Shown in pieces: positions 1 through 62,469 of a stretch of DNA of 64,000 bases. Both the position numbers and the translations under genes were made by a program. Position 1 is the first letter of the stretch; every line of letters begins with the position of its first letter. Source of the stretch: Tragulus kanchil (lineage: Eukaryota > Chordata > Mammalia > Artiodactyla > Tragulidae); contig JAIOJX010000026.1 of NCBI GenBank assembly GCA_022376925.1, positions 250,229,330-250,293,329 of the forward strand, read 5' to 3'. Below the pieces are notes generated by a model. It ran no database searches, was not told the origin of the DNA, and saw only the letters and a program-made list of their open reading frames with translations.

Positions 1-169
1 TATTTCTAAGGACAACCTGCTAATAACTTATATGCTCAAATGCCATAATCCAAAGTGGTTTAATGGTGCCATCAAAATTCCATTTTTCTGTCCAACCAAA
101 GGCTCATTTATTGTGCCAGCAATATAAAGCACGAGGATCATGATAAAACTCATGGAAATAAAGGCAGTG

Positions 170-395
170 GAATATACAGTAGCAATGAGAGGATTCTAGA
201 CTCGAACCAAAGAGTTCTGGGTTGTGTCCCACCCTGCCAATCACTGCACAAGAAGTCTTGGGCCAAGGGTCTGAGCTGCAGTCTCTCCCAGGCAAAACAG
301 ACTTCAAGACTCCCTTGCAGAGCTGCCATATGTGAAGTACATGGCATACAGTGGGATCTGGTAATAGATGATAGCTATTATCAAAACTTTAATAT
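170..395 (+). mobile_element. MIR SINE (old, mammal-wide), copy 1
   Basis: The order of segments fits the MIR consensus: a GTAGC-type start, a tRNA-like head with a degenerate box B (gactcgaacc), a 'cctgccaatcactg' segment, a 'cttgggccaag' core and a 3' end running into an AT-rich 'gatagctattat'. It is strongly diverged, as expected for MIR. It holds the frames visible on the minus strand, which are not genes. Confidence 0.65.
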
Positions 396-828
396 TTAAG
401 AAGCAGGTATAAGAAGAGGAAATATTGAGGGAGACTGAGAATCACAAGGGTTGAATTAATAGGTTGAATTATAAGAAATTGCCAAAATTTGACCACTATG
501 ACTCATTACACTAGTAATTTTAAAATAAATACTGTAAAAGAAGGTTGAAAGGAGAGAACATGGACAATGAATATCCCGTACTCATTCCCCAACTGGTGGC
601 AGCCTAGAAGAAATCCAGACACCAGATGGGAAGGCTACAGACTAAAATAGAAAACACCTTCGTCAACTCCTCACCAGATAGGAGGTGCGACTTCAGGGAA
701 GGGAAGATTCAACAGAGACAGACAGAAAGACACAGAAACACACACACACACACTCACATGTAGCCCGTATAACTCACTTGCTCGCTCTCTTCCGACTCTG
801 CTTTTCTTTCCTTATTTCTTTCCCCATG

Positions 829-882
829 ATAATCTCCAGGATGTTCTAAGGAAAAGTCAGACATGACTTAGCAACTGAACAA
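829..882 (+). mobile_element. Short Bov-tA/BovB 3' tail fragment
   Basis: The stretch around 855-880 reads 'cagacatgacttagcaactg', the typical 3' end of BovB-derived SINEs. Only about 30 bases are recognisable. Confidence 0.5.
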
Positions 883-1251
883 TGACTTGGATAAAAAACC
901 TAGATAGAAGACCAGCCAAAGTGGAGTCAGAAAGAAGGCGAGATTTCCTAATGCTTGGACCCCTGGGATGGATTTAAGTTCCAAATATCAGAGCACTTTC
1001 TCTTCCAGCAGTTAAATTAGGCTGAGAAGAGAGGCATCTACTGTAAACCACGACAGGAGGAGTACAATTCAGAACCAGAAAATATTTCTAAGGACAACCT
1101 GCTAATAACTTATATGCTCAAATGCCATAATCCAAAGTGGTTTAATGGTGCCATCAAAATTCCATTTTTCTGTCCAACCAAAGGCTCATTTATTGTGCCA
1201 GCAATATAAAGCACGAGGATCATGATAAAACTCATGGAAATAAAGGCAGTG

Positions 1252-1477
1252 GAATATACAGTAGCAATGAGAGGATTCTAGACTCGAACCAAAGAGTTCT
1301 GGGTTGTGTCCCACCCTGCCAATCACTGCACAAGAAGTCTTGGGCCAAGGGTCTGAGCTGCAGTCTCTCCCAGGCAAAACAGACTTCAAGACTCCCTTGC
1401 AGAGCTGCCATATGTGAAGTACATGGCATACAGTGGGATCTGGTAATAGATGATAGCTATTATCAAAACTTTAATAT
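1252..1477 (+). mobile_element. MIR SINE, duplicated copy
   Basis: Repeat of the MIR at 170-395, shifted by 1082 as part of duplication D1. It shows no independent divergence. Confidence 0.65.
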
Positions 1478-2043
1478 TTAAGAAGCAGGTATAAGAAGAG
1501 GAAATATTGAGGGAGACTGAGAATCACAAGGGTTGAATTAATAGGTTGAATTATAAGAAATTGCCAAAATTTGACCACTATGACTCATTACACTAGTAAT
1601 TTTAAAATAAATACTGTAAAAGAAGGTTGAAAGGAGAGAACATGGACAATGAATATCCCGTACTCATTCCCCAACTGGTGGCAGCCTAGAAGAAATCCAG
1701 ACACCAGATGGGAAGGCTACAGACTAAAATAGAAAACACCTTCGTCAACTCCTCACCAGATAGGAGGTGCGACTTCAGGGAAGGGAAGATTCAACAGAGA
1801 CAGACAGAAAGACACAGAAACACACACACACCCTCACTCACATGTAGCCCGTATAACTCACTTGCTCGCTCTCTTCCGACTCTGCTTTTCTTTCCTTATT
1901 TCTTTCCCCACGCAAGACCAAAAGGTGACTTCTGTTAACCATTTTCAGAAGAAAACGCCAGCATTTCTGGTCAGCTGATGTTACCAGTTGCATAGCAAGC
2001 CTTTCTGCAGCCTTGTGGAGCAGCTGGTAGAAAAATTAATCCT

Positions 2044-2087
2044 TTCTGGGGGGTGGGGGGGGTGTGTGGGTGTGGGTGTGGGTGTGG
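2044..2087 (+). repeat. G/T-rich simple repeat
   Basis: A run of G, GTGT and GTGGGT units sits directly before the minus-strand Bov-tA. On the minus strand it forms the CA-rich tail of that SINE. Confidence 0.85.
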
Positions 2088-2290
2088 TGTTAGTTGCTTA
2101 GTCATGTCTGATTCTCTGCAACCTCATGGACTGTAGCCCACCAGGCTCCTCTGTCCATGAGATTCTCTGGGCAAGAACACTGGAATGGGTTTCCATTTTC
2201 TTCTCCAGGGGATCTTCCTAATCCAGGAATTGAATCCAGGTCTCCCACATTGTAGGCAGACTCTTTACCATCTGAGCCACTAGGGAAGCC
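2088..2290 (-). mobile_element. Bov-tA SINE
   Basis: Near full-length element in reverse orientation. It opens with the BovB-derived module (tagttgcttagtc, catggactgtag, ccaggctcctctgtccatg) and ends with the complement of the tRNA-like head (ctctttaccatctgagccac, agggaagcc). A G/T simple tract follows its 3' end. The minus-strand frame here is only a translation of the SINE. Confidence 0.93.
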
Positions 2291-2850
2291 CATGGTTATC
2301 TGATAGTCATGTCAATTCCTGGATGAGATCTGAGTTTTCAGACCCCCAATGAGCCCAATACCAAGTGGCTCTATTCCAGCTATATTAAGTCTGCAAAAGG
2401 CTCTGAGGGAAGAATCAGCACCTTGAGCAGACAGGGATCAACAACAGAGAAGAGTAAGCAAGAAGGAACCTGTCATGTCTTCTATCCCCTCAATGCACTC
2501 TTCTCTAAACAGAAATCAGCTTCACTGGTAATCAGATCACCTCTCTCTGTTGGGTCTCACTTTCGGGGATGCAAATCCATCCTTACAGAACTTCCGCACT
2601 CCCCATTTTCAGGAGGTGTGCATGTTGTATCTGCTGTCTGGCAACGATGTGGTAATCCTTGATGATTACCCTCACATGTAACACCATGCAGGCTTTCATC
2701 AGTGGACAATCTCAAAGCACTGTTTACAAGAGTGTGCAGGATACCACCCGCGTGGGCCGGAACCAGATTTTCTAGTTTTCTAATGGTATGTTTGTTTCTC
2801 CAAAGCTTCACTCTAGGGTTCCTGGGTCTATCTACCTGATTAGACAGACC
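2291..2850. other. Unassigned sequence, no gene seen
   Basis: About 560 bases that I cannot assign to a repeat family. Overlapping frames of 79 and 84 codons on opposite strands have no recognisable domain and no supporting splice or promoter context. Confidence 0.6.
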
Positions 2851-3381
2851 TTAGCAAAACTTCAACAGCGCGCTTCTTGAAAGTAGGCCCTTTGTATATC
2901 CAGCACCCTGCTGTATCTCCAATGCCTGGTTCAGCATCCCACCAAACTTATTTGAATATCCATGGAACAAAGGAAGCTAAAATTACAGAAAAACAAGACA
3001 TATTAACAATTCCAAGCTCAGAAACTTGCCAAAGAAAACGTCTCAATCACTAAATGGCTAAGTTTCTACCTAGACTTCAATTCACAGCAGCACAAAAGGT
3101 ACCAAACTCTCATTTGACAGGGATAGGTTAACACAAGAAACATAAAGAAGCAGATAAAAATTATAGAAAAATTACTATTTCATAAAAATAGTCTTCATTT
3201 TAGAATGGCGGTAAATTTGAATAAATTTCCTAGTACATTTATTCATCAAACAACTAATCCATGGTTAAGTTTTTCAGAACTGTATCTACAGAAATTTCCA
3301 GAAACGCTGAAGGGGGTTATTACAAAAGAATGGTACAAAAATAAATGAACAGAGAACTAATGCTTTTGAAAACCATTCTTC

Positions 3382-3597
3382 TGAGACTTTTCCTGGTGGA
3401 CCAGTGGCTAAGACTTTATGTTCCTAATGAAAGGGGCCCTTCAGTCCTTGGTCATGGAACTATATCCTGCCTGACACAACTGAGTTTGCATAATGTAACT
3501 AAAGATCTTGTGTGCTGCCAAGGAAGACTGAAGATCTCATGTACTGCAACTAAGACTCAGCATAGGCAAATAAATAAAAATAAATAATAATAAAAAA
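3382..3597 (+). mobile_element. CHR-type tRNA-derived SINE, copy 1
   Basis: It begins 'gagacttttcctggtgg' (a diverged 'gacttccctggtgg') and has the middle 'ccttggtcatggaactatat' and a tail of (AAATA)n. A 7-base target-site duplication, attcttc, is seen at 3375 and 3598, so the ends are well defined. The 80-codon plus-strand frame over it is not a gene. Confidence 0.85.
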
Positions 3598-4484
3598 ATT
3601 CTTCCAATACCCTCTTCCAACTTTTTATCTCAATTATCAACCTATATAAAAATTTCACCAGATCATACTCCCTAATTAAAGTTCAACAAGAACAAACTGA
3701 ATAAAGGCCATCAACATTCTTTTTCTAATTGTTTGGTTTAATTTTTATTTGCCCAAAGGCACACAGGCATTTTCAAGGCTAGGTGGGAAACTGCTTGTCC
3801 TTGTGCAAAATTAACAAGCTAACAGACCAAAAGACTGAGCAAACTTTAAAAAAGTTAGAAGTGAACAAGATTTCATACGGCTGCATTTTCTTGTAGTTGT
3901 GTTCTGTGTGTGTGTACTACATGTGCATAATTATGTCCAACAAGCTATGCATTTTAGCAAAACTTCAACAGCGCGCTTCTTGAAAGTAGGCCCTTTGTAT
4001 ATCCAGCACCCTGCTGTATCTCCAATGCCTGGTTCAGCATCCCACCAAACTTATTTGAATATCCATGGAACAAAGGAAGCTAAAATTACAGAAAAACAAG
4101 ACATATTAACAATTCCAAGCTCAGAAACTTGCCAAAGAAAACGTCTCAATCACTAAATGGCTAAGTTTCTACCTAGACTTCAATTCACAGCAGCACAAAA
4201 GGTACCAAACTCTCATTTGACAGGGATAGGTTAACACAAGAAACATAAAGAAGCAGATAAAAATTATAGAAAAATTACTATTTCATAAAAATAGTCTTCA
4301 TTTTAGAATGGCGGTAAATTTGAATAAATTTCCTAGTACATTTATTCATCAAACAACTAATCCATGGTTAAGTTTTTCAGAACTGTATCTACAGAAATTT
4401 CCAGAAACGCTGAAGGGGGTTATTACAAAAGAATGGTACAAAAATAAATGAACAGAGAACTAATGCTTTTGAAAACCATTCTTC

Positions 4485-4700
4485 TGAGACTTTTCCTGGT
4501 GGACCAGTGGCTAAGACTTTATGTTCCTAATGAAAGGGGCCCTTCAGTCCTTGGTCATGGAACTATATCCTGCCTGACACAACTGAGTTTGCATAATGTA
4601 ACTAAAGATCTTGTGTGCTGCCAAGGAAGACTGAAGATCTCATGTACTGCAACTAAGACTCAGCATAGGCAAATAAATAAAAATAAATAATAATAAAAAA
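4485..4700 (+). mobile_element. CHR-type SINE, duplicated copy
   Basis: Same element as at 3382-3597, shifted by 1103 in duplication D2. The A-rich tail and flanking attcttc are preserved. Confidence 0.85.
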
Positions 4701-5060
4701 ATTCTTCCAATACCCTCTTCCAACTTTTTATCTCAATTATCAACCTATATAAAAATTTCACCAGATCATACTCCCTAATTAAAGTTCAACAAGAACAAAC
4801 TGAATAAAGGCCATCAACATTCTTTTTCTAATTGTTTGGTTTAATTTTTATTTGCCCAAAGGCACACAGGCATTTTCAAGGCTAGGTGGGAAACTGCTTG
4901 TCCTTGTGCAAAATTAACAAGGTAACAGACCAAAAAAGACTGAGCAAACTTTAAAAAAGTTAGAAGTGAACAAGATTTCATACGGCTGCATTTTCTTGTA
5001 GTTGTGTGCTGTGTGTGTGTACTACATGTGCATAATTATGTCCAACAAGCTATGCATTTT

Positions 5061-6500: not shown

Positions 6501-7034
6501 CCTCATGACAGATTCAAAGCAGAAGAGGAACTCTCTAAGGGAAATATGAACAGTAAAAATTGAGAAATAATTATGCTCACGAAAAAAAGAGGTAGGCCTA
6601 CCAGAACATGTGTTTTGTGTAGTCATGACTTTCCATTCAAAGTAAAAAAAAACTCACCCAGAGTCTATGTTAATGAGACTAAGAATTAAAGTTTTTTTTA
6701 AATGCAAAAAGACAGTGGACAAACTAAATGTATACACCAAACCATAGTTTTCTACTGACTTACATATGAAAACAAGGAAGCACTCCCTACTCCAATAGTT
6801 TAGACCATCATCTTTTTCTAAATTACACATATACAGAAAAGTATCAAGAGCTGGAGAGCAACACTCAAATATGCTAACACTGTAATATTACTGGAAACTA
6901 AAATGTCAATAGGATGTAAGAAGGGAAATGATTCATCTTATAAGAATAACGTTAATTTTTCTTTCTGAGAAAATTATTCCTGAGATGATCACATGGAGCC
7001 AGGCCTCCACACAATTCTCGAGGCTAGGCTGTCA

Positions 7035-7325
7035 CTTGAACTGCCAGGAAATCAAACCAGTCAATTCCTAAAGGAAATAAACCCTGAGTATTCGATGGAA
7101 GGTGTGACTCTCAAGCTGAAGCTCCAAACCTTTGGCCACCTGATGCGAAGAGCCAACTCACTGGAAAAGACACCGATGCTGGGAAAGACTGGTGGCAGAG
7201 GATGAATGATTGGATGGCATCCCTGAGTCAATGGACATGCATTTGAGCAAACTCTGGGTGAGAGTGAAGGCGTGCTGTAGTCCATCGGGTTGCAAAGAGG
7301 CAGACATGACTGAGTGACTAAACAA
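7035..7325 (+). mobile_element. BovB LINE 3' end, copy 1
   Basis: BovB landmarks in order: 'aaaccagtcaattcctaaagg', 'ggccacctgatgcgaagag', 'ggaaaagacaccgatgctgg', 'gattggatggcatccctgag', 'gacatgactgagtgactaaa'. It encodes only remnants of the reverse-transcriptase C-terminal tail (HLMR, SLEKTPMLGK in the 70-codon frame). 5' truncated and decayed. Confidence 0.92.
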
Positions 7326-8130
7326 CAGGCTGTCACTAGCTGGCCTTCTTCCGGATGTCTTCACTCAAGGTGCTGGGAGCCAGAGTGACAAAGAGATGAG
7401 TCCTCACCATGTTACCTTCTTAATGGTTCTCCCCACCTGACCCATTTTCTCAGCCTCTACCTTTTAACGCCACATAGTGGGAAGAAAAGAGCACATAAAT
7501 TGCTATATAATGTAAATGAACTTAATAAGCCTAAAGGAGGTAGGAGAAAGGAGCCCAGGACCAAAGTTGAATGTTAAGGAAAAGAGAAGGAAGTTCCAAG
7601 AAATAAGCTTGCAGGTTATCAGCACTAACCACTTTACATTTACACACAGAAATGCTAAATGCGTGGAGTCATTTCAAATCATGACTCTACTGATTCATTT
7701 AATGTGTTCAAGAAAAACTGTGATGAAGGTGATCTAAAAGTCTTGAGGTGTAGATGATTCCCTATCAAAATAAGGGGTGGTAGACTTAGTTTGAAAACTC
7801 AAAATCACAAATAAATGTTCAGAAAAATTTTACATAAAAGACAGTGGACTGACCCTTTATTATGAAAACAAGGAAGCACTCCCTACTCCAATAGTTTAGA
7901 CCATCATCTTTTTCTAAATTACACATATACAGAAAAGTATCAAGAGCTGGAGAGCAACACTCAAATATGCTAACACTGTAATATTACTGGAAACTAAAAT
8001 GTCAATAGGATGTAAGAAGGGAAATGATTCATCTTATAAGAATAACGTTAATTTTTCTTTCTGAGAAAATTATTCCTGAGATGATCACATGGAGCCAGGC
8101 CTCCACACAATTCTCGAGGCTAGGCTGTCA

Positions 8131-8421
8131 CTTGAACTGCCAGGAAATCAAACCAGTCAATTCCTAAAGGAAATAAACCCTGAGTATTCGATGGAAGGTG
8201 TGACTCTCAAGCTGAAGCTCCAAACCTTTGGCCACCTGATGCGAAGAGCCAACTCACTGGAAAAGACACCGATGCTGGGAAAGACTGGTGGCAGAGGATG
8301 AATGATTGGATGGCATCCCTGAGTCAATGGACATGCATTTGAGCAAACTCTGGGTGAGAGTGAAGGCGTGCTGTAGTCCATCGGGTTGCAAAGAGGCAGA
8401 CATGACTGAGTGACTAAACAA
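8131..8421 (+). mobile_element. BovB LINE 3' end, duplicated copy
   Basis: Same fragment as at 7035-7325, shifted by 1096 in duplication D3; no differences seen across the recognised part. Confidence 0.92.
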
Positions 8422-8937
8422 CAGGCTGTCACTAGCTGGCCTTCTTCCGGATGTCTTCACTCAAGGTGCTGGGAGCCAGAGTGACAAAGAGATGAGTCCT
8501 CACCATGTTACCTTCTTAATGGTTCTCCCCACCTGACCCATTTTCTCAGCCTCTACCTTTTAACGCCACATAGTGGGAAGAAAAGAGCACATAAATTGCT
8601 ATATAATGTAAATGAACTTAATAAGCCTAAAGGAGGTAGGAGAAAGGAGCCCAGGACCAAAGTTGAATGTTAAGGAAAAGAGAAGGAAGTTCCAAGAAAT
8701 AAGCTTGCAGGTTATCAGCACTAACCACTTTACATTTACACACAGAAATGCTAAATGCGTGGAGTCATTTCAAATCATGACTCTACTGATTCATTTAATG
8801 TGTTCAAGAAAAACTGTGATGAAGGTGATCTAAAAGTCTTGAGGTGTAGATGATTCCCTATCAAAATAAGGGGAGTGGTAGACTTAGTTTGAAAACTCAA
8901 AATCACAAATAAATGTTCAGAAAAATTTTACATAAAA

Positions 8938-9372
8938 TAGGAAATACTGACATTTATCGCAACAAGGATGCAACCAGGAATTATCATACTGAATCTGGAA
9001 AGAGAAAGACAAATACCATACGAGATCACTTATATGTGGAATCTAAAATATGGCACAAATGAACCTATTTACAAAACAGAAAGAGACTCATAGCCGTAGA
9101 GAATAGATTTGTGGCTGCCAAAGGGGAGGGGATGGACTAGGAGTCTAGAGTTGGTAGATACAAACTATTACTTTAAGAATGGATAAACAGTAAGGTCCTA
9201 ATGAATAGCACAGGGAACTATATTCAATATGCTCTAATAAACCATAATGGAAAAGAATGTAAAAAAAATGCATGTATGTGTATAACTGAGTCACTCTGAT
9301 GTACAGCAGAGACTGGCACAACACTGTAAATCAATTATACTTCAATAAAAAATTAAATTAAAAAAATTTTTT
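8938..9372 (+). mobile_element. L1 LINE 3' end, copy 1
   Basis: Artiodactyl L1 3' sequence: 'gcaacaaggatgcaacc', 'cttatatgtggaatctaaaa', 'gaatagcacagggaactat', 'gtatacagcagagactgg'-like segment, and the end 'tatacttcaataaaaaatt' with an A-rich tail. 5' truncated, no intact coding. Confidence 0.93.
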
Positions 9373-10052
9373 TAATCTTTAAAAATTCTAAAAAAACGTA
9401 TCTTTTTTTTTTTTTTTGGCTTTCTCCTTACATACTGAAAATCAAAACTCAAAATAGGATGAAGAATGTGAGATTTCTTAGTTTATCAAAACTGAGCACA
9501 GGTTTAACAAACGAAAAATTCAGAATTTACTGTTCTGGAAGATTCTGTCAACCAAAACTGGTGTCAACCAGTGGGTTGGTACAGGAACTTGGATTCGACT
9601 CTCATTTAGTTCAGAGGATAATAGGGAGCCCAAAGTTCTACTTCAATGATCTCAGCCTCAAAATCCATCTTATATGTCGATGGTTTCTTTTGGGGATGAT
9701 GAATACGTTCTAATATTAGATAACGTCGACAATTGCACAACTCTGTGGATTTACTAAAAGCCAAAAAAGGACCAAGGGTTGAATGTTAAGGAAAAGAGAA
9801 GGAAGTTCCAAGAAATAAGCTTGCAGGTTATCAGCACTAACCACTTTACATTTACACACAGAAATGCTAAATGCGTGGAGTCATTTCAAATCATGACTCT
9901 ACTGATTCATTTAATGTGTTCAAGAAAAACTGTGATGAAGGTGATCTAAAAGTCTTGAGGTGTAGATGATTCCCTATCAAAATAAGGGGAGTGGTAGACT
10001 TAGTTTGAAAACTCAAAATCACAAATAAATGTTCAGAAAAATTTTACATAAA

Positions 10053-10487
10053 ATAGGAAATACTGACATTTATCGCAACAAGGATGCAACCAGGAATTAT
10101 CATACTGAATCTGGAAAGAGAAAGACAAATACCATATGACATCACTTATATGTGGAATCTAAAATATGGCACAAATGAACCTATCCACAAAACAGAAACA
10201 GACTCATAGCCGTAGAGAATAGATTTGTGGCTGCCAAAGGGGAGGGGATGGACTAGGAGTCTAGAGTTGGTAGATACAAACTATTACTTTAAGAATGGAT
10301 AAACAGTAAGGTCCTAATGAATAGCACAGGGAACTATATTCAATATGCTCTAATAAACCATAATGGAAAAGAATGTAAAAAAAATGCATGTATGTGTATA
10401 ACTGAGTCACTCTGATGTACAGCAGAGACTGGCACAACACTGTAAATCAATTATACTTCAATAAAAATTAAATTAAAAAAATTTTTT
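10053..10487 (+). mobile_element. L1 LINE 3' end, duplicated copy
   Basis: Same L1 fragment shifted by about 1115. It differs from copy 1 by a cluster of substitutions around 10134-10202 (tatgacatc for tacgagatc, tatccac for tatttac, aaacagac for aaagagac). Confidence 0.93.
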
Positions 10488-10799
10488 TAATCTTAAAAAA
10501 TTCTAAAAAAACGTATCTTTTTTTTTTTTTTTGGCTTTCTCCTTACATACTGAAAATCAAAACTCAAAATAGGATGAAGAATGTGAGATTTCTTAGTTTA
10601 TCAAAACTGAGCACAGGTTTAACAAACGAAAAATTCAGAATTTACTGTTCTGGAAGATTCTGTCAACCAAAACTGGTGTCAACCAGTGGGTTGGTACAGG
10701 AACTTGGATTCGACTCTCATTTAGTTCAGAGGATAATAGGGAGCCCAAAGTTCTACTTCAATGATCTCAGCCTCAAAATCCATCTTATATGTCGATGGT

Positions 10800-10950
10800 T
10801 TCTTTTGGGGATGATGAATACGTTCTAATATTAGATAACGTCGACAATTGCACAACTCTGTGGATTTACTAAAAGCCACTGAATTACACACCACAAAAGA
10901 GTGAATGTCTTTATGAACTAAGTCAATAAAACTGTGTTTTTTAAAAAAAT
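10800..10950 (+). mobile_element. Old L1 (L1M-type) 3' end
   Basis: Pattern 'attgcacaactctgtggat', 'actaaaagccactgaatta', then 'caataaaactgtg' and A-rich sequence is the 3' terminus of old L1M subfamilies. The partial first copy lies at about 9685-9763 and is cut by the D4 junction. Confidence 0.75.
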
Positions 10951-11059
10951 CAGTCTTAAAGCTCTTGTGCCTTTTTCTATATAATTTAAACCTTGAGTGT
11001 ATGCTGTGATGTGCTTGCTAACTGTATGAGCATACTTTGTCTCCTGATTCATTTTGTGG

Positions 11060-11215
11060 AAAGAGCCAAAACACTGGGATCACATAGTTTAGGAACTGAA
11101 GTTGCATGCTGTCGCCTCCCAGGCTCTGGGATCTTGAGCACATTATTATCTGAGCCCCAGTCCCCAGCTATAAAACAAGCGATACTACCTACCTATCCGA
11201 TGAGGAGGTTGCAAA
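11060..11215 (+). mobile_element. MIR SINE, copy 1
   Basis: Core 'gatcttgagcacattatta', then 'cagctataaaacaagcgata', 'tacctacctatccgatgagg' follows the MIR consensus (ttgggcaagttact, tgtaaaatggggataa, tacctcatagggttg). The overlapping 145-codon frame at 10993-11430 is a chance reading through this MIR, not a gene. Confidence 0.8.
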
Positions 11216-11678
11216 TCATCACCAAGCTCAGACTGATGTTAAGTGGCAGAAAATTAAAGTGGAACGGGCTCTATTCAGAAGGTGAGGAGAAAATAAAAGG
11301 ACAGATACAAAAGCAGGAAGGATGTGGCAAATGCAGAGTCAGGACCACAGTCAGCCTGCCTAGAATCAGGGCAAACCCCTCTGGAATCCTCTTTTTGGTT
11401 CTAATGATGCTTTGGGGTAGGGTGAGGTGAAGTGGGATGATGGGGATACGGTTGTTCCCAGAGCAAGCGCTATTACCAACACTACTTTATCTGTAAATAT
11501 TTAAATCTCTGGATTCTTCCTCAAGCTATTTTATGAGTAACCACAGAGTAGAGACATTTTCCATACTCATAAATCCCCTCAAGTGTCATTAACCATTCAG
11601 TCCACTAAAGGAATTATAGCCTCTTGATTTGGTTTCCTATTAATTAGAACACATAGCTTTGCACCAGGATTCATTTTT

Positions 11679-12003: not shown

Positions 12004-12143
12004 CCAGGATTCATTTTTATGGATTAATTCTATATAATAAAACATGCCTGAAGTTGACTGTATTAACAGCCTTTCACAAGCCTCAAGATTAAACCTTTTT
12101 TGGGTGGAATAGAGCATACTTTGTCTCCTGATTCATTTTGTGG

Positions 12144-17080: not shown

Positions 17081-17084
17081 TAAA

Positions 17085-29595: not shown

Positions 29596-29631
29596 AATCT
29601 GTGGGTGACATGGATATATTCCTCAATACCA

Positions 29632-50670: not shown

Positions 50671-50724
50671 GGGGGGGGGGGGCCACACTTTCCACCCCAT
50701 GCCTTCCCAAATATAACAGAAGGA

Positions 50725-50965: not shown

Positions 50966-51854
50966 GCACAAAGGTTGAATAGTTACTCACATGCTGCCTT
51001 ATCATCCCCATTAAAAAAAAAAAAGTTAAATACATTTATAAACATATAAATTCAAAACGTGGCATTGTTGTGTCCAGGGAACAGTAAGGGGAAAAGGGGA
51101 GAAAAGGTGTGTGGTTACAACTTGAAAGTCAAGTAGTTTTATGGGGCCCCAGAGAGCTCTGGCAATTTTTCCATGAATGTCTGAATATTCCTCATAATCA
51201 TTATTCCCTGTTGAAATAACTTCCATGAGTAACCACAGAGATGACTACTCCCCAAACAAACCCAGAGTTACTCCCGAAGGCCCCACACTATGCCAGGCTT
51301 CTTTTCAGTTAGCACTTCTATGATCACTTGCAAATCTCCTCCCTCTCAACCCCTCTAATCTGGTTTCCTCCCTCATGCTACACTAACACAGACAGGACTA
51401 ACGCCACCCTAAACTATCCAAACAAGCTGCCTTGGAGAACCCCTATTTGTTTGGGTCACAGGATTACGCAGGAGAACCTTCCCATGACTGAGCAACTGAA
51501 CAGGCTATTAGAATAAGCCTGCAACAGGTATTTAAGGGAAAAGGCTGAGACCATTTAAAGAAAATGAAGTAACTAGTCAAATGTATGGTAAACAGACAGG
51601 AAGGGTGCCCAGCTCACCCTGGTTTGTCTAAGCCTCTGGCACTGAGGATCCTGGCGTAGCTCTCCAACACGGGCACTCTTGCCCACCACCACCAGCTCCC
51701 AAGGTCCCTACATAGCAGTGAGTGGAAGAGTCAGTCAACAACTCAACAATAAACACAAGGTTTCTGTCCTTGAGGAAGTGACAAGCTAATTTTAAAAGGG
51801 GGGGGGGGGGACACACTTTCCACCCCATGCCTTCCCAAATATAACAGAAGGACT

Positions 51855-52093
51855 ATTGTACCAGAAGACCAGGATTCTGCCCTCGATCCATCACTGACTG
51901 ATCCATCACTAAGTCTTTAATCATGGGCAAGTCTTTTTCAGCACATTTAAGCTACAGGATTTTCTTTTTTCCTGTAAAATGCAATATACTAATTTTGGTC
52001 CTGCCTTCTGTACAAAGATTACGTAGAGGCTCACTTAAGATGTGGTGGTATTTTTGTAAACTGCAAAGCCCTCCACAAATGAAAGCTACGTAG
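51855..52093 (+). mobile_element. Probable MIR SINE, duplicated copy
   Basis: Copy of 50725-50965 in D17. Confidence 0.5.
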
Positions 52094-53250
52094 GCACAAA
52101 GGTTGAATAGTTACTCACATGCTGCCTTATCATCCCCATTAAAAAAAAAAAAGTTAAATACATTTATAAACATATAAATTCAAAACGTGGCATTGTTGTG
52201 TCCAGGGAACAGTAAGGGGAAAAGGGGAGAAAAGGTGTGTGGTTACAACTTGAAAGTCAAGTAGTTTTATGGGGCCCCAGAGAGCTCTGGCAATTTTTCC
52301 ATGAATGTCTGAATATTCCTCATAATCATTATTCCCTGTTGAAATAACTTCCATGAGTAACCACAGAGATGACTACTCCCCAAACAAACCCAGAGTTACT
52401 CCCGAAGGCCCCACACTATGCCAGGCTTCTTTTCAGTTAGCACTTCTATGATCACTTGCAAATCTCCTCCCTCTCAACCCCTCTAATCTGGTTTCCTCCC
52501 TCATGCTACACTAACACAGACAGGACTAACGCCACCCTAAACTATCCAAACAAGCTGCCTTGGAGAACCCCTATTTGTTTGGGTCACAGGATTACGCAGG
52601 AGAACCTTCCCATGACTGAGCAACTGAACAGGCTATTAGAATAAGCCTGCAACAGGTATTTAAGGGAAAAGGCTGAGACCATTTAAAGAAAATGAAGTAA
52701 CTAGTCAAATGTATGGTAAACAGACAGGAAGGGTGCCCAGCTCACCCTGGTTTGTCTAAGCCTCTGGCACTGAGGATCCTGGCGTAGCTCTCCAACACGG
52801 GCAAACCAGGACAGTAGACTGTCCTACTCATCAAATGAGGCAGTGCCTCAAGGTTGGGAATGGTGCTAGCCTTTCCCAGAATGTGTTCAGCAAAATCCTA
52901 TCCAGTCTCCCTGGGGTGTGAACAGCTGTGCAGTCATAAAGGGTTCCACTGTGGAATAAACTGGCAAAACTCCAGGGATATCCGGGATAGATGATTTAAT
53001 TAATGGTTTTCCCAAATGCCAGCTTCCCAGAACTTCCAAAGTACTCTGGTCATTTAGTGTCTGAGAGGAGGACATGTCCTGCATTTCTCCAGCTCATATA
53101 AGGGGCTTTGTTGTGGAGCACTGTTTGATGGAAGATTCAAGAAACTTTTTGTTAAATGTTGCCTCACCTGTACTTCCTGGTGATCTCATGATGTCACTTC
53201 TTTTGATATCAATCTTCTGTTTTTTTTTTTTTTTTTAAAAAAAAGCCAAT

Positions 53251-53357
53251 AGACTTCCTTGGTGGTCCAGTGGTTGAGACTCTGCACTTTCACTGCAGGG
53301 GGCATAGGTTCCATCCCTGGTGAGGGAACTAAATCCCCGACGCCACAAGGTTCAACC
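53251..53357 (+). mobile_element. CHR-type SINE (short form), copy 1
   Basis: 'agacttccttggtggtccag', 'tggttgagactctgcacttt', 'ggttccatccctggtgaggg', 'aactaaatccccgacgccac'. Confidence 0.88.
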
Positions 53358-54327
53358 AAAAGGGTTGTTTGGTTGGTTGTTTTTTAAAGTCTGTCTCCTT
53401 TCCAAGCTCTTCCATCTTTTATCCCTTCCTGTATTCTAATGATTTACAAATTTTTAAAAGCATCCAAATCACCCAGCGATAGGGTTGTTTGGTTGGGGTT
53501 GTTCTGCAATACTAAAGAGTCAATCCATTTTACCAGATCTGCAACTCCTCTCAACCCCTCTAATCTGGTTTCCTCCCTCATGCTACACTAACACAGACAG
53601 GACTAACGCCACCCTAAACTATCCAAACAAGCTGCCTTGGAGAACCCCTATTTGTTTGGGTCACAGGATTACGCAGGAGAACCTTCCCATGACTGAGCAA
53701 CTGAACAGGCTATTAGAATAAGCCTGCAACAGGTATTTAAGGGAAAAGGCTGAGACCATTTAAAGAAAATGAAGTAACTAGTCAAATGTATGGTAAACAG
53801 ACAGGAAGGGTGCCCAGCTCACCCTGGTTTGTCTAAGCCTCTGGCACTGAGGATCCTGGCGTAGCTCTCCAACACGGGCAAACCAGGACAGTAGACTGTC
53901 CTACTCATCAAATGAGGCAGTGCCTCAAGGTTGGGAATGGTGCTAGCCTTTCCCAGAATGTGTTCAGCAAAATCCTATCCAGTCTCCCTGGGGTGTGAAC
54001 AGCTGTGCAGTCATAAAGGGTTCCACTGTGGAATAAACTGGCAAAACTCCAGGGATATCCGGGATAGATGATTTAATTAATGGTTTTCCCAAATGCCAGC
54101 TTCCCAGAACTTCCAAAGTACTCTGGTCATTTAGTGTCTGAGAGGAGGACATGTCCTGCATTTCTCCAGCTCATATAAGGGGCTTTGTTGTGGAGCACTG
54201 TTTGATGGAAGATTCAAGAAACTTTTTGTTAAATGTTGCCTCACCTGTACTTCCTGGTGATCTCATGATGTCACTTCTTTTGATATCAATCTTCTGTTTT
54301 TTTTTTTTTTTTAAAAAAAAGCCAATA

Positions 54328-54434
54328 GACTTCCTTGGTGGTCCAGTGGTTGAGACTCTGCACTTTCACTGCAGGGGGCATAGGTTCCATCCCTGGTGAG
54401 GGAACTAAATCCCCGACGCCACAAGGTTCAACCA
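54328..54434 (+). mobile_element. CHR-type SINE (short form), duplicated copy
   Basis: Copy of 53251-53357 shifted by 1077. Confidence 0.88.
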
Positions 54435-54534
54435 AAAGGGTTGTTTGGTTGGTTGTTTTTTAAAGTCTGTCTCCTTTCCAAGCTCTTCCATCTTTTATCC
54501 CTTCCTGTATTCTAATGATTTACAAATTTTTAAA

Positions 54535-54690
54535 AGCATCCAAATCACCCAGCGATAGTGCTGCAATACTGATTCTGATTCAGTAGTACTGGGGCAGGCC
54601 TGAGACTGCATCTCTAGCAATGCGAACTCCCCAAAGATGCCATTACCCCTAATCCAAGGACTCACACTTAAGTAGCAGGACTCTGGTCAC
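54535..54690 (+). mobile_element. MER5A-like hAT DNA transposon relic
   Basis: 'ctgattctgattcagtagta', 'ctggggcaggcctgagactg', 'catctctagcaatgcgaact' matches the MER5A core (gattcagtaggtctgggg, gcatttctaacaagttccc). Non-autonomous, ancient. It starts inside the end of D18. Confidence 0.8.
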
Positions 54691-54897: not shown

Positions 54898-55960
54898 AGA
54901 CAGAAGGAGTGGCTACAATAAAGAGATGCAGGACCTTGGTCCAGGGAAGATTTTAAAGAATGAAGTTGTTAGGCAGAGTCAGACTTTTGCCTTGGAATTC
55001 TGCAGCTGAGGATCTTCAGCAAGAGGAACCAGCAGAGTGCACACTATCATCGCAGAGTCCAATCACAACAGATAATCAATGCCTATTTGTTACAGAATAC
55101 AAAACAATGAAATTTCCAATTTTCTTGAAATGAAAATGAAATCCAGATCTTCCAATTAACATTTAATAGACTAAAATCACTGGGCACTGTGGGAAATTAA
55201 ACATCACTAACCTCTACAACTGCATTCATCCACTTTAGGGAGAATCCTTTTGACAATTTAAGTTTAAACAAGCCTTTGTGAAAAAATTACTCCAGCAGGT
55301 TTAACGCAGTCACAGCTGTCAAAATCATGGACAACGTATCACACTTAAGAAAACATGTGAAAATGTGTCAATAATTATAATTTGACACTTGTACCAGATC
55401 GAATAGACTTACACTACCCTTTAACTTCAAGTGATATGAAATTAAAACCAGTTTCTTCAAAGTGCAGCTCTCAGACCGTTATTTAATTCTAAAGTAGATA
55501 TAAAACCTGTCACACAACTGAGATAGAATACATTTTACTCAAGAGGAGAAAAAGCCACAGTATTGTAATATATTATTTTCGGTAAGGTGACCAACTTTAA
55601 TGCTGGAAGGGTAAAATACATTATCGAGGTGACAGTATCTTCCAGTATTTACTCCACCCAAGATTTCCTCTTCAAAACTATCCATGACCTGCACAGCCTA
55701 GAGATAATAACTATTAACATTCCGGTTTATTTCCTACTAGCCTTTTTTTCTCTATATCCATATAGTATACAACTCCAAACCTGAACTGTACTATATTTTA
55801 TGTTTATGGAATTGTACACAATTCCTGTGTATGGAATTACACTGTTTCCCACTGTCCTGCTTTTTGTACTTGATGTGGTTTTGTATAACCTACATCGTCA
55901 ATCTATTTTTTCCAAAATTTTCTTTGTCTTACCATGGATAAGGCAGTATACTGTACTAAG
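54898..55960. other. Unassigned sequence, no gene seen
   Basis: No element named. Plus-strand frames of 65 and 74 codons are low-complexity and have no domain. The part from 55335 is in D19. Confidence 0.5.
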
Positions 55961-56234
55961 GACAGGACACACACACACACACAGGGATTACAAAACAGAC
56001 ACTATTCCTACTCTTGGTATTTAACAACCGACACAGATTACATATATGCTGTACATTATACAGGGATACACATATATGTCCATATGTATATAATAATGCA
56101 TGCAAGATACAGAAAAAAAAAGTACTGACTACATGGAATAGCCAAGAAAAGTCCCTTTGAGAGGGTAGCTTTTAAGGTGACATCTGTCCCCGGAAATTCA
56201 TTTAAAATAATATTTTGTGATTACATAATTTCCA

Positions 56235-56424
56235 TGTTATTTATATATATATGTATATATATATATATACATACATAAATACATACATAATGTATGTTTA
56301 TATATATTAAATATATAATATATATATAAATATATGCACATATATATTTTTATATATACTATATAGAGAGAGTACACTATATATATTTTCTACATATATA
56401 TATACGTAGTCTTTGTACATATAT
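56235..56424 (+). repeat. AT-rich microsatellite, copy 1
   Basis: TATATA, ATATGTATATA, ATACATAC and AAATATATA units, with self-complementary stretches. Repeated unchanged at 57377-57566. Confidence 0.92.
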
Positions 56425-57376
56425 ACTTAACCTCTAAAGGTTATTGTAGAGCATTTCGGTTACCTGTCAAATCATGCGTATCACACTTAAGAAAACATGT
56501 GAAAATGTGTCAATAATTATAATTTGACACTTGTACCAGATCGAATAGACTTACACTACCCTTTAACTTCAAGTGATATGAAATTAAAACCAGTTTCTTC
56601 AAAGTGCAGCTCTCAGACCGTTATTTAATTCTAAAGTAGATATAAAACCTGTCACACAACTGAGATAGAATACATTTTACTCAAGAGGAGAAAAAGCCAC
56701 AGTATTGTAATATATTATTTTCGGTAAGGTGACCAACTTTAATGCTGGAAGGGTAAAATACATTATCGAGGTGACAGTATCTTCCAGTATTTACTCCACC
56801 CAAGATTTCCTCTTCAAAACTATCCATGACCTGCACAGCCTAGAGATAATAACTATTAACATTCCGGTTTATTTCCTACTAGCCTTTTTTTCTCTATATC
56901 CATATAGTATACAACTCCAAACCTGAACTGTACTATATTTTATGTTTATGGAATTGTACACAATTCCTGTGTATGGAATTACACTGTTTCCCACTGTCCT
57001 GCTTTTTGTACTTGATGTGGTTTTGTATAACCTACATCGTCAATCTATTTTTTCCAAAATTTTCTTTGTCTTACCATGGATAAGGCAGTATACTGTACTA
57101 AGGACAGGACACACACACACACACAGGGATTACAAAACAGACACTATTCCTACTCTTGGTATTTAACAACCGACACAGATTACATATATGCTGTACATTA
57201 TACAGGGATACACATATATGTCCATATGTATATAATAATGCATGCAAGATACAGAAAAAAAAAGTACTGACTACATGGAATAGCCAAGAAAAGTCCCTTT
57301 GAGAGGGTAGCTTTTAAGGTGACATCTGTCCCCGGAAATTCATTTAAAATAATATTTTGTGATTACATAATTTCCA

Positions 57377-57566
57377 TGTTATTTATATATATATGTATAT
57401 ATATATATATACATACATAAATACATACATAATGTATGTTTATATATATTAAATATATAATATATATATAAATATATGCACATATATATTTTTATATATA
57501 CTATATAGAGAGAGTACACTATATATATTTTCTACATATATATATACGTAGTCTTTGTACATATAT
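57377..57566 (+). repeat. AT-rich microsatellite, duplicated copy
   Basis: Copy of 56235-56424 with no length change, unexpected for such a mutable tract unless the copy is an artefact or very recent. Confidence 0.92.
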
Positions 57567-57604
57567 ACTTAACCTCTAAAGGTTATTGTAGAGCATTTCG
57601 GTTA

Positions 57605-58634
57605 TTTTTATTTTTGCTGTTTCACAGAGATTTGAATAAATGTGTAGACCCAAAGAGCTTTAGTAAGTGATTTTTTTTTCTGATGAGTAACCAGGGCCTC
57701 AAAATCTTTTCCAGAATAACCATATTTATATTAACAACTCCAAATTCCCAAGTCTTTCAATGAAATAATCCAACCACATTGCTTAATTTTAGGGGAGCCT
57801 GGAATACAGGAAATAAACATGAATTTTATATTACATTTTATTTACTCAGTTCTGAATTTTTTTAAGTATATCTAATTTGGTAACCACCAAGAAATCCAAT
57901 CACCTTGTTAAACTATACCAGCCAAATATCTCAAAATTTTAAATAATCTCCTCTTTTACTTTCTTCATATTATAAAATATTTTGAAAGAGTTAAAGCAGC
58001 CTGCTCTGGTCTGTGCCCAAGTCATAAATAAAATTTTGCTGTTTCTTAAAAACTATCATGGGCCTATTGCTTTTTTAAAAATGCTATTACAAAAATAAAG
58101 CATTTTTCCCTAAGTCTAAAAATCCATTGACTCCATTCTTGATCAATAATAAAAAGCTGAGTATATGAGTTTCTTGGTCAGTAAATGCATACTTACCACT
58201 CAACCATATTTAAGAGAGAGAGACAACCAACCATATAAGTTCTGCTTTTAACATAAAGCACAAACCAGACACAGTACTTTAAAACAATCAAAGTTAAGCT
58301 GTGGTTAGCAAAGCTCCCAATCCCAAGATTTTTCGCAGACTCAAACTTATACAGGGGAAAAAAGTTACCAGACGCCACTTACCAGAAAAGCCAAAACAGA
58401 GGACAACTGAAAGAGGATCAAGAAATTATCAAACTTTAGAAACAGCTGATTCTATACCCCTCCTGACATATAAGAAAAGTGCCACAAAGAAAAAGGTTAG
58501 CATAATGACTTTGGGGGCCACGACACTGGTTGACAACAGAGAACAGACTAGGTTTTCAGTCTTACGGGTTACTTTCTCATTTCCACCATGCCATTTTGTT
58601 CCAACTTATACTGTAATTTCAACTGTAAAGATCC
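57605..58634. other. Unassigned AT-rich sequence
   Basis: No gene. The 112-codon plus-strand frame at 58301-58639 (repeated at 59425) has no recognised domain; it ends just before the L1/SINE region. Confidence 0.5.
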
Positions 58635-58635
58635 T

Positions 58636-59290
58636 TTAATTCAACAACTCCAACTCTAGATATTTACCCTCAGATATACAGGCAATAGGGCTTCCCAGGT
58701 GGTTAAGAACCCATCTGCCAATGCAGGAGACATAAGAGATGTGGGTTCGATCCCTGGGTCAGGAAGATTTCCTGGAGGAGGACATAGCAACCCACTCCAG
58801 TATTCTTGCCTGGAGAATCCCACGGACAGAAGAACCTGGTGGTCTATAGTCCACAGGGTTGCAAAGAATCGGACACGACTGAAGCGACTTAGCACAACAC
58901 GCACAGAACACATACAGGAGATAGACAGATGGATCTGAGTTACATGGTTTCGGATCTACATATCCATCTATATATAAATCAATATGTAGATATAGTAGTA
59001 AATGTAAAGATAGTCACTGCAACATTGTAACACATAATGTTACCTAAAATAACGAGTGAAAGACTGACTGAATACATCATGATACATTCACACAATGAAA
59101 TACCTTTCAAAAGGAGAAAACTCTGGTGGTACTGATAGCAAAACCTTTCCAAGATAAATTAAATGAGAATAAGTCAGGTGTAGAATTGAAAGGTGCACAA
59201 TGTGATACACATATGACATAAGAAAAACACTTAAGTCTGTGCCTGTAAATGTTAAGACTATCACTGGGAACATACACAGTTTTAATCATG
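58636..59290 (+). mobile_element. Old L1 (L1M-type) split by Bov-tA, copy 1
   Basis: 'caactctagatatttaccct' before the SINE; after it 'agatagtcactgcaacattg', 'catgatacattcacacaatg', 'gaaatacctttcaaaaggag', 'tccaagataaattaaatgag', 'aggtgcacaatgtgatacac' follow the 3' region of old L1M. No coding capacity. Confidence 0.75.
58689..58904 (+). mobile_element. Bov-tA SINE in L1M, copy 1
   Basis: 'gggcttcccaggtggttaag', 'gtgggttcgatccctgggtc', 'cccactccagtattcttgcc', 'ggacacgactgaagcgactt'. Full length; flanking 'atacagg' on both sides is the likely target-site duplication. Confidence 0.95.
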
Positions 59291-59759
59291 GCTTTTCTTG
59301 GTCAGCAAATGCATACTTACCACTCAACCATATTTAAGAGAGAGAGACAACCAACCATATAAGTTCTGCTTTTAACATAAAGCACAAACCAGACACAGTA
59401 CTTTAAAACAATCAAAGTTAAGCTGTGGTTAGCAAAGCTCCCAATCCCAAGATTTTTCGCAGACTCAAACTTATACAGGGGAAAAAAGTTACCAGACGCC
59501 ACTTACCAGAAAAGCCAAAACAGAGGACAACTGAAAGAGGATCAAGAAATTATCAAACTTTAGAAACAGCTGATTCTATACCCCTCCTGACATATAAGAA
59601 AAGTGCCACAAAGAAAAAGGTTAGCATAATGACTTTGGGGGCCACGACACTGGTTGACAACAGAGAACAGACTAGGTTTTCAGTCTTACGGGTTACTTTC
59701 TCATTTCCACCATGCCATTTTGTTCCAACTTATACTGTAATTTCAACTGTAAAGATCCT

Positions 59760-60490
59760 TTAATTCAACAACTCCAACTCTAGATATTTACCCTCAGATA
59801 TACAGGCAATAGGGCTTCCCAGGTGGTTAAGAACCCATCTGCCAATGCAGGAGACATAAGAGATGTGGGTTCGATCCCTGGGTCAGGAAGATTTCCTGGA
59901 GGAGGACATAGCAACCCACTCCAGTATTCTTGCCTGGAGAATCCCACGGACAGAAGAACCTGGTGGTCTATAGTCCACAGGGTTGCAAAGAATCGGACAC
60001 GACTGAAGCGACTTAGCACAACACGCACAGAACACATACAGGAGATAGACAGATGGATCTGAGTTACATGGTTTCGGATCTACATATCCATCTATATATA
60101 AATCAATATGTAGATATAGTAGTAAATGTAAAGATAGTCACTGCAACATTGTAACACATAATGTTACCTAAAATAACGAGTGAAAGACTGACTGAATACA
60201 TCATGATACATTCACACAATGAAATACCTTTCAAAAGGAGAAAACTCTGGTGGTACTGATAGCAAAACCTTTCCAAGATAAATTAAATGAGAATAAGTCA
60301 GGTGTAGAATTGAAAGGTGCACAATGTGATACACATATGACATAAGAAAAACACTTAAGTCTGTGCCTGTAAATGTTAAGACTATCACTGGGAACATACA
60401 CAGTTTTAATCATGGCTTTTCTCCAGGAAAGGAAAGCACAAAGCCAGAGGACGACTTACCTTTCACTATATGCCCTTCCTCACTTCAAGT
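59760..60490 (+). mobile_element. Old L1 (L1M-type) split by Bov-tA, duplicated and extended copy
   Basis: Copy of 58636-59290, continuing past the end of D20 to 'ctttcactatatgcccttcc'. A third partial copy lies at 61394-61587 because of D21. Confidence 0.75.
59813..60028 (+). mobile_element. Bov-tA SINE in L1M, duplicated copy
   Basis: Copy of 58689-58904 shifted by 1124. Confidence 0.95.
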
Positions 60491-60576
60491 CTTTCCTTGA
60501 GCACATGTAAGATAACACAAATTTTGTTTCTAAAACATAAAATATTATAATGAATAAAGGTGATTTTTTTGTTGTT

Positions 60577-60704
60577 GTCTTTTTTTGGTTTTTTTGGCTG
60601 CTCTACACAGCAGGTGGGATCTTGGTTCCCTGACCGAAACCCAGGATCGAACCTGTGTCGCTTTGCAGTGGAAACAGTCTTAACCATTGGACTGCCAGGG
60701 AAGA
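60577..60704 (-). mobile_element. CHR-type SINE (short form), copy 1
   Basis: Reverse element: T-rich tail, 'ggctgctctacacagcaggt', 'gggatcttggttccctgacc', 'ccaggatcgaacctgtgtcg', 'cttaaccattggactgccag'. Confidence 0.92.
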
Positions 60705-61002
60705 AAAATATATGATTTTTAAGAAAAGATTTCTAAGAACCTGCATTAACCTGCATATATAATGAAATAAAGCTGTGTGTGCATTAGAAATAAAACAGCA
60801 ATTTGAAAAAAAAATTTTTTAAAGAGTAAGATGGTCCAAAAGAGAGACTGAAATGTCCAAGACAAAGATCTTTATGAGATCAAAAGAAATGCCCTCCTGG
60901 AAAATTTCCATGTTCAATACCCACATCTAAAAAAGATTCACTCCACCAGTGCTTAGAATGTCATAGAACAATAAAACTTTCAAGGATTAAAAAGGAACCA
61001 GA

Positions 61003-61240
61003 GGGCTTCCCCTGGTGGTCCAGTGGGTAAGGACACCGCCTTGCAGTGCGAGGAGCTCCGGTTCAATCCCTGGCCTGGGAAGATCCCTCGTGTTGCTGAG
61101 AGGCTGGACCGATGTGTCCAACTACTGAGCCGGAGCTCTGGAGCGAGAGAGGCCACTGCGATGGGAGGCCTACGCAGGCCAAAGAACAAAGATGGATGAA
61201 AATGAATAAACGAAAGACCAAAGAAGTGGCCAAGAGAAAA
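61003..61240 (+). mobile_element. CHR-like SINE, internally deleted subfamily, copy 1
   Basis: Head and middle as at 40231, but the segment after 'ccggagctctggagcg' jumps directly to 'agagaggccactgcgatggg', so about 35 bases are missing. The 3' module 'gccaaagaacaaagatggat' is kept. Target-site duplication aaaaggaaccag-like at 60989 and 61241. Confidence 0.93.
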
Positions 61241-61674
61241 AAAAAGGGAACCAGGGGAGAAGGAGAGTAGTTGAGGTGCACCTAGATGATTAAGTAACAA
61301 TTGGCTGGAGGGAATCCTAAACAAGCAAGCCAAGATAAAGGAAAAAAAACTCATCTGAATTTGAAAAGGACTCATTCTCTTTTAGAATAAATTAAGTCAG
61401 GTGTAGAATTGAAAGGTGCACAATGTGATACACATATGACATAAGAAAACACTTAAGTCTGTGCCTGTAAATGTTAAGACTATCACTGGGAACATACACA
61501 GTTTTAATCATGGCTTTTCTCCAGGAAAGGAAAGCACAAAGCCAGAGGACGACTTACCTTTCACTATATGCCCTTCCTCACTTCAAGTCTTTCCTTGAGC
61601 ACATGTAAGATAACACAAATTTTGTTTCTAAAACATAAAATATTATAATGAATAAAGGTGATTTTTTTGTTGTT

Positions 61675-61802
61675 GTCTTTTTTTGGTTTTTTTGGCTGCT
61701 CTACACAGCAGGTGGGATCTTGGTTCCCTGACCGAAACCCAGGATCGAACCTGTGTCGCTTTGCAGTGGAAACAGTCTTAACCATTGGACCGCCAGGGAA
61801 GA
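61675..61802 (-). mobile_element. CHR-type SINE (short form), duplicated copy
   Basis: Copy of 60577-60704 shifted by 1098, with one T to C change (ggactgcc/ggaccgcc). Confidence 0.92.
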
Positions 61803-62100
61803 AAAATATATGATTTTTAAGAAAAGATTTCTAAGAACCTGCATTAACCTGCATATATAATGAAATAAAGCTGTGTGTGCATTAGAAATAAAACAGCAAT
61901 TTGAAAAAAAAATTTTTTAAAGAGTAAGATGGTCCAAAAGAGAGACTGAAATGTCCAAGACAAAGATCTTTATGAGATCAAAAGAAATGCCCTCCTGGAA
62001 AATTTCCATGTTCAATACCCACATCTAAAAAAGATTCACTCCACCAGTGCTTAGAATGTCATAGAACAATAAAACTTTCAAGGATTAAAAAGGAACCAGA

Positions 62101-62338
62101 GGGCTTCCCCTGGTGGTCCAGTGGGTAAGGACACCGCCTTGCAGTGCAAGGAGCTCCGGTTCAATCCCTGGCCTGGGAAGATCCCTCGTGTTGCTGAGAG
62201 GCTGGACCGATGTGTCCAACTACTGAGCCGGAGCTCTGGAGCGAGAGAGGCCACTGCGATGGGAGGCCTACGCAGGCCAAAGAACAAAGATGGATGAAAA
62301 TGAATAAACGAAAGACCAAAGAAGTGGCCAAGAGAAAA
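62101..62338 (+). mobile_element. CHR-like SINE, internally deleted subfamily, duplicated copy
   Basis: Copy of 61003-61240; one change in the head (cagtgcaagg for cagtgcgagg). Confidence 0.93.
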
Positions 62339-62469
62339 AAAAAGGGAACCAGGGGAGAAGGAGAGTAGTTGAGGTGCACCTAGATGATTAAGTAACAATT
62401 GGCTGGAGGGAATCCTAAACAAGCAAGCCAAGATAAAGGAAAAAAAACTCATCTGAATTTGAAAAGGAC

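What the first reader, a model, noticed from the sequence alone, without database searches (positions are those of the whole stretch)
1..62469. 21 direct tandem duplications of 1.07-1.19 kb chained through 62 kb
Each duplication has the form flank-U-U-flank with U near 1.1 kb, and the copies are almost identical. The units share no sequence with each other and contain any mix of SINE, LINE and unique DNA, so no single repeat family explains them. Distances between successive junctions are variable (about 1.8-7.6 kb), but the overlap length is nearly fixed. This is what results when consecutive consensus blocks that share about 1.1 kb are concatenated without merging. One possibility is the wtdbg2 design, in which graph nodes are 1,024 bp and each edge consensus includes both nodes; a failed join would leave the node twice. 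If so, about 23 kb of this window does not exist in the animal.
Basis: partly seen in the sequence, partly recalled or inferred. Interest (0 to 1): 0.88.

Follow-up and report, generated by a model that had tools for sequence, protein, structure and literature searches.

The report
Unmerged assembly blocks, not real duplications
The chain of 1.1-kb tandem duplications is real in this sequence file but almost certainly not in the animal: it looks like a genome-assembly error in which overlapping pieces were pasted end to end without merging, and it recurs on every large chromosome checked.

Summary
Observation confirmed. The window holds 21 head-to-tail direct duplications with offsets of 1,072-1,190 bp. 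Unit 1 is misplaced: its junction is near 826/827 and copy 1 starts about 250 bp left of the window.

The host assembly is 3.167 Gb in 32 contigs, 16 of them large. One stretch from each large contig at 30.0 Mb (10 of 10 kb, 6 of 4 kb) carries the same duplications: 31 units in 124 kb, offsets 1,066-1,202 bp, no other tandem offset class. The 16 small contigs were not sampled for this. At that density about 28% of the assembly is surplus and the true genome about 2.27 Gb (1.95-2.58).

Copies agree at 99.75% in their interior; within 75 bp of junctions, on the side that would be a block end, differences are about 20-fold denser and mostly deletions. That fits consensus-block ends, not a biological breakpoint.

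Unit length, the floor on spacing (737-823 bp) and weak 256-bp periodicity (p = 0.03) point to a wtdbg-type assembler. Its identity is inferred: no reads or assembly record were available.

The parts
1..1910 (+). Unit 1: copy 1 (starts about 250 bp left of window) to ~826, copy 2 827-1910
2851..5058 (+). Unit 2: copy 1 2851-3953, copy 2 3954-5058
6765..8957 (+). Unit 3: copy 1 6765-7860, copy 2 7861-8957; its last part is shared with unit 4 (3 copies)
8653..10883 (+). Unit 4: copy 1 8653-9767, copy 2 9768-10883
11010..13194 (+). Unit 5: copy 1 11010-12098, copy 2 12099-13194
12901..15285 (+). Unit 6: copy 1 12901-14095, copy 2 14096-15285
14887..17068 (+). Unit 7: copy 1 14887-15974, copy 2 15975-17068
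17838..20029 (+). Unit 8: copy 1 17838-18932, copy 2 18933-20029
23042..25325 (+). Unit 9: copy 1 23042-24185, copy 2 24186-25325
27538..29779 (+). Unit 10: copy 1 27538-28658, copy 2 28659-29779
29763..32020 (+). Unit 11: copy 1 29763-30890, copy 2 30891-32020
32482..34668 (+). Unit 12: copy 1 32482-33578, copy 2 33579-34668
40063..42273 (+). Unit 13: copy 1 40063-41167, copy 2 41168-42273
43731..45880 (+). Unit 14: copy 1 43731-44808, copy 2 44809-45880
45510..47749 (+). Unit 15: copy 1 45510-46647, copy 2 46648-47749 (start of copy 2 strongly deletion-degraded)
48509..50673 (+). Unit 16: copy 1 48509-49590, copy 2 49591-50673
50542..52798 (+). Unit 17: copy 1 50542-51670, copy 2 51671-52798
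52470..54628 (+). Unit 18: copy 1 52470-53546 (end degraded), copy 2 53547-54628; contains a tRNA-Glu-like sequence that is therefore predicted twice (53256 and 54332)
55314..57603 (+). Unit 19: copy 1 55314-56461, copy 2 56462-57603
58170..60417 (+). Unit 20: copy 1 58170-59293, copy 2 59294-60417
60283..62477 (+). Unit 21: copy 1 60283-61381, copy 2 61382-62477

Best explanation
Assembly artefact. The contig was made as a series of separately computed consensus blocks. Each block begins and ends with a graph node of about 1 kb that it shares with its neighbour, and the blocks were written out end to end without merging the shared node, so every unmerged node stands twice. The pattern fits a wtdbg/wtdbg2-type long-read assembly, in which reads are cut into 256-bp bins, nodes are 4 bins (1,024 bp) and may overlap by at most one bin (design recalled; only the 256-bp bins were seen in a paper). 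By sampling, the failure is genome-wide in this 3.17-Gb ruminant assembly. Shown: the duplications, their fixed size, their presence on all 16 large contigs, and the degraded block ends. Inferred: the concatenation step, the assembler's identity and the noisy-long-read origin.
For: Offsets of 1,066-1,202 bp (mean 1,109, SD 31) for 44 units in the window and the ten 10-kb stretches, with no other tandem length class. Duplications in 16 of 16 stretches, one per large contig. Ten same-strand pairs within 20 kb among the 38 listed hits outside the window: nine at 1,074-1,148 bp and one at 2,150 bp, the outer pair of a triple. Differences on the block-end side within 75 bp of the junction 179 per 3,000 positions (112 of them deleted bases) against 15 per 5,000 at 75-200 bp; deletions exceed insertions at 19 of the 23 edges with unequal counts (counted by hand, all distances), sign test p = 0.0026. 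18 of 22 interior gaps lie in homopolymers. No successive node starts closer than 737 bp, eight of 34 at 737-823 bp, next value 941. 25 offsets below 2.1 kb prefer multiples of 256 bp at scale 1.00 with phase 0.01 (R = 0.43, p = 0.029 allowing for the scale scan). Implied true size 2.27 Gb (1.95-2.58), near 2.44 and 2.58 Gb for two giraffe assemblies (PMC12621783, passages) and 2.6 Gb estimated for sika deer (PMC10372904, passage).
Against: No raw reads, coverage or assembly record could be examined. Mean unit length is 1,109 bp, not 1,024; staggered read ends would add a fixed excess of about 85 bp, but that is inference. The two smallest spacings, 737 and 738 bp, are slightly under 768. The 256-bp signal is weak and was sought after the data were seen. 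Several junctions are clean (units 11 and 13 have no edge differences), as a sharp biological breakpoint would be, while the edge excess leans on a few bad edges (one edge each of units 15 and 18 gives 34 of the events). Size is a soft argument: bongo assemblies of 2.84 and 2.94 Gb exist (PMC12239632, passage), so 3.17 Gb is not wildly large and 2.27 Gb is rather small. wtdbg2's own consensus program is meant to merge such overlaps (recalled), so a further failure must be assumed.
Confidence: 0.88

Rival explanations
1. Same kind of artefact (unmerged overlapping consensus blocks) but from another long-read assembler, an in-house stitching script, or a polishing step that works in overlapping chunks.
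For: Any unmerged overlap of about 1.1 kb gives the same picture; the assembler record was not seen.
Against: Chunk-wise polishers would give fixed spacing, whereas spacing runs from 737 to 6,580 bp. Unmerged de Bruijn k-1 overlaps would be of constant length, whereas SD is 31 bp. The spacing floor near 3 x 256 bp and the 256-bp preference point to a binned graph.
Confidence: 0.1
2. Two haplotypes of the same region placed in tandem by the assembler (false haplotypic duplication).
For: Copies differ by about 0.25% in the interior, within the range of heterozygosity.
Against: Haplotypic duplications have no fixed length. Here all are 1.07-1.20 kb, 18 of 22 interior gaps are homopolymer gaps, and 6 of 20 pairs have no interior difference at all.
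Confidence: 0.01
3. Real tandem duplications in the animal's genome, recent and size-limited.
For: The sequence itself; some junctions are sharp.
Against: Would need about one fixed 1.1-kb duplication every 4 kb on every large chromosome sampled, no older or other-sized ones, and junction-side copies that tend to lose bases. Recent duplications of 1 kb or more are reported as 3.1% of the cattle genome (PMC2796684, start of abstract in search listing) against about 28% surplus here.
Confidence: 0.005

Closest known systems
wtdbg / wtdbg2 fuzzy de Bruijn graph assembly (Ruan and Li 2020; paper not held)
   Same: 256-bp bins (passage in PMC9902641); nodes of 1,024 bp and one-bin maximum node overlap (recalled) match the overlap length, the spacing floor and the triple overlaps
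   Different: Its consensus step (wtpoa-cns) should merge neighbouring blocks (recalled); here the merge failed or was skipped. Units are about 85 bp longer than a node.
False duplications in long-read assemblies in general (haplotypic retention, unmerged overlaps; recalled)
   Same: Sequence present once per haplotype appears twice in the assembly and inflates its size
   Different: Here every extra copy has one size, is in direct tandem, and makes up about a quarter of the sampled assembly

Membership tests
Unmerged overlapping consensus blocks | Direct tandem copies of near-fixed length at irregular spacing | tested here: met
   44 units, mean 1,109 bp, SD 31; spacing 737-6,580 bp
Unmerged overlapping consensus blocks | Copies degraded at block ends, i.e. 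end of copy 1 and start of copy 2 | tested here: met
   179 of 3,000 against 15 of 5,000 positions; 112 of the 179 are deleted bases; some junctions clean
Unmerged overlapping consensus blocks | Genome-wide occurrence | tested here: met
   16 of 16 large contigs, one stretch each; the 16 small contigs not sampled for this
Unmerged overlapping consensus blocks | Raw reads do not cross U-U junctions and collapsed coverage is normal | not testable with these tools
   no reads available
wtdbg/wtdbg2 origin | Overlap of one 1,024-bp node | tested here: inconclusive
   mean 1,109 bp, 8% longer; excess explained only by inference
wtdbg/wtdbg2 origin | Neighbouring nodes at least 3 bins (768 bp) apart | tested here: met
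   eight of 34 spacings at 737-823 bp, none lower, next 941; two are about 30 bp under 768
wtdbg/wtdbg2 origin | Node spacing in multiples of 256 bp | tested here: inconclusive
   R = 0.43 at scale 1.00, p = 0.029, n = 25
wtdbg/wtdbg2 origin | Assembly record names wtdbg | not testable with these tools
Biological tandem duplication | Both copies intact up to a sharp breakpoint, variable lengths and ages | tested here: not met
   fixed length and degraded edges at most, not all, junctions

The most novel reading that the evidence does not exclude
The duplications exist in the animal: some process in this ruminant lineage or cell sample copies fixed blocks of about 1.1 kb in tandem throughout the genome.
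Probability: 0.005. Interest if true: 0.95.

Novelty: not a real feature. Interest (0 to 1): 0.15.

Why it matters
If the sampled density holds, about 0.9 Gb (0.6-1.2) of this 3.17-Gb chromosome-scale assembly is not in the animal. Tandem-repeat, segmental-duplication and gene-family analyses, exon counts and coordinates taken from it would be wrong, and a scan for tandem duplications in it would return mainly the artefact. The signature (fixed overlap, errors at block ends, spacing floor) allows such assemblies to be screened from sequence alone.

Tried and rejected
Species naming: 16 contigs over 50 Mb, the next 10.7 Mb, suggest 2n of roughly 30-34, and the SINEs look like ruminant Bov-tA (name recalled; the tRNA-Glu-like hits are). 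The Rothschild's giraffe assembly is 2.44 Gb, so it is not this one. Listings of searches on muntjac, giraffe, mouse-deer, kudu/eland and Tragelaphus with wtdbg and passages of the muntjac, giraffe, sika deer and bongo papers showed no assembly that fits.

Paper evidence for this particular wtdbg failure was sought and not seen in the listings; passages of PMC12037172 and PMC9848057 did not help. The wtdbg2 paper is not held.

A test of whether coding exons are doubled (PF00870) and a mitochondrial search (PF00033) did not complete because the genome-search machine was busy. Ten of the 24 listed ORFs of the window, each trimmed by one codon, gave no Pfam match up to E = 0.1, so I have no coding exon to show.

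The idea that the units exceed 1,024 bp because raw reads are deletion-biased by 8% was dropped: spacings fit 256 bp best at scale 1.00. A fixed excess at block ends fits better.
Full report
Observation. Two scans of the window find the tandem duplications: one search lists 21, one search shows the 20 largest of 23 repeat families. Local alignment and a junction-fitting alignment give the coordinates listed under parts. For the 20 units complete in the window, copy 1 averages 1,113 bp (SD 29) and copy 2 1,111 bp (SD 27). In L001, which includes 1.4 kb of upstream sequence, the unit begins about 250 bp before window base 1, and window 827-1082 matches the 256 bases just upstream of the window at 251 of 256 positions. 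The surplus in the window is 23,077 bases.

What the copies look like. In unit interiors, at least 100 bp from either end, there are 24 mismatches and 22 gaps in 18,242 aligned positions; 18 of the 22 gaps lie in homopolymers, and 6 of 20 units have no interior difference. Near junctions it is different. Taking the end of copy 1 and the start of copy 2 as block ends, and their partners as block interiors, there are 179 differences (112 deleted bases, 46 mismatches, 21 inserted bases) in 3,000 positions within 75 bp of the junctions and 15 in 5,000 positions at 75-200 bp (20 junctions). At 19 of the 23 edges with unequal counts the block-end copy has lost bases relative to the interior copy (counted by hand; sign test p = 0.0026). 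Cautions: the junction position was chosen to maximise alignment score, neighbouring differences are not independent, and one edge each of units 15 and 18 gives 34 events; units 11 and 13 have no edge differences at all. A true tandem duplication gives no reason for one side of each copy to decay; a consensus that runs out of reads at its ends does.

Triple copies. Seven of the 20 adjacent unit pairs in the window share a stretch of at least 100 bp that is present three times, seen as repeats at offsets of 2,176-2,275 bp. This is what results when two nodes overlap: the shared piece lies in the block before, the short block between, and the block after.

Genome-wide. I sampled all 16 at 30.0 Mb, ten with 10 kb and six with 4 kb. 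Each of the 16 stretches carries the duplications: 23 units in the ten and 8 in the six, some clipped by stretch ends. The 16 small contigs were not sampled, apart from the first 100 bases of some. Scanning tandem offsets of 100-9,000 bp found only offsets of 1,066-1,202 bp and their doubles. Independently, the 38 listed hits outside the window to a window query include ten same-strand pairs within 20 kb: nine at 1,074-1,148 bp, and one at 2,150 bp that is the outer pair of a triple. Of the five loci fetched around such hits outside the window, four show a unit and one, L006, shows none in its 3 kb. The sampled density is 0.26 junctions per kb, or about 28% surplus, implying a true size of 2.27 Gb (normal approximation to Poisson, 1.95-2.58). 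The window itself is denser (21 in 64 kb). For comparison, giraffe assemblies are 2.44 and 2.58 Gb (PMC12621783, passages), the sika deer genome is estimated at 2.6 Gb (PMC10372904, passage), and three bongo assemblies are 2.42, 2.84 and 2.94 Gb (PMC12239632, passage); the size argument is therefore only supporting.

Which assembler. wtdbg2 simplifies reads into 256-bp bins (PMC9902641, passage). That nodes are four bins and that neighbouring nodes may overlap by at most one bin is recalled, not read. This predicts overlaps near 1,024 bp and node starts at least 768 bp apart in steps of 256. Pooled node-start spacings (34 values, with unit 1 corrected and one pair clipped by a stretch end left out) have eight values at 737-823 bp, none lower, and the next at 941. 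The 25 spacings below 2.1 kb prefer 256 bp with best scale 1.00 and phase 0.01 (R = 0.43; p = 0.029 after allowing for the scale scan). This is suggestive only. The mean overlap of 1,109 bp exceeds 1,024 by about 85 bp; since spacings fit scale 1.00, a fixed excess from staggered read ends is more likely than a length bias of the reads. Chunked polishing is disfavoured by the variable spacing, and unmerged de Bruijn overlaps by the variable overlap length.

Verdict. The finding is correctly observed and correctly read: an assembly artefact, here shown by sampling to reach every large contig. I put artefact of some kind at about 0.99 and the wtdbg-type block explanation at 0.88. It is not a biological feature and scores low on interest, but anyone using this assembly should know of it. 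The wtdbg2 paper was not available, and three searches, judged by their listings, showed no paper describing this particular failure.

Noticed in passing
window 53256-53328 and 54332-54404: A tRNA-Glu-like sequence (probably the head of a Bov-tA-type SINE, name recalled) is called as a tRNA gene twice, 1,076 bp apart: one example of the artefact doubling an annotation.
   Followed up: yes
window 11752-11980, 12836-13093 and about 26594-26851: Matching dispersed repeats far apart in the window, looking like a ruminant SINE family; the first two are the two copies within unit 5.
   Followed up: no
G000 contigs C14, C16, C25: Some small contigs have round lengths (200,000, 242,000, 225,000 bases), as if cut at fixed places during scaffolding.
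   Followed up: no
L027 (G000:C29:1-100) and L019 (G000:C21:1-100): The first 100 bases of two small contigs look like low-quality, homopolymer-rich consensus.
   Followed up: no
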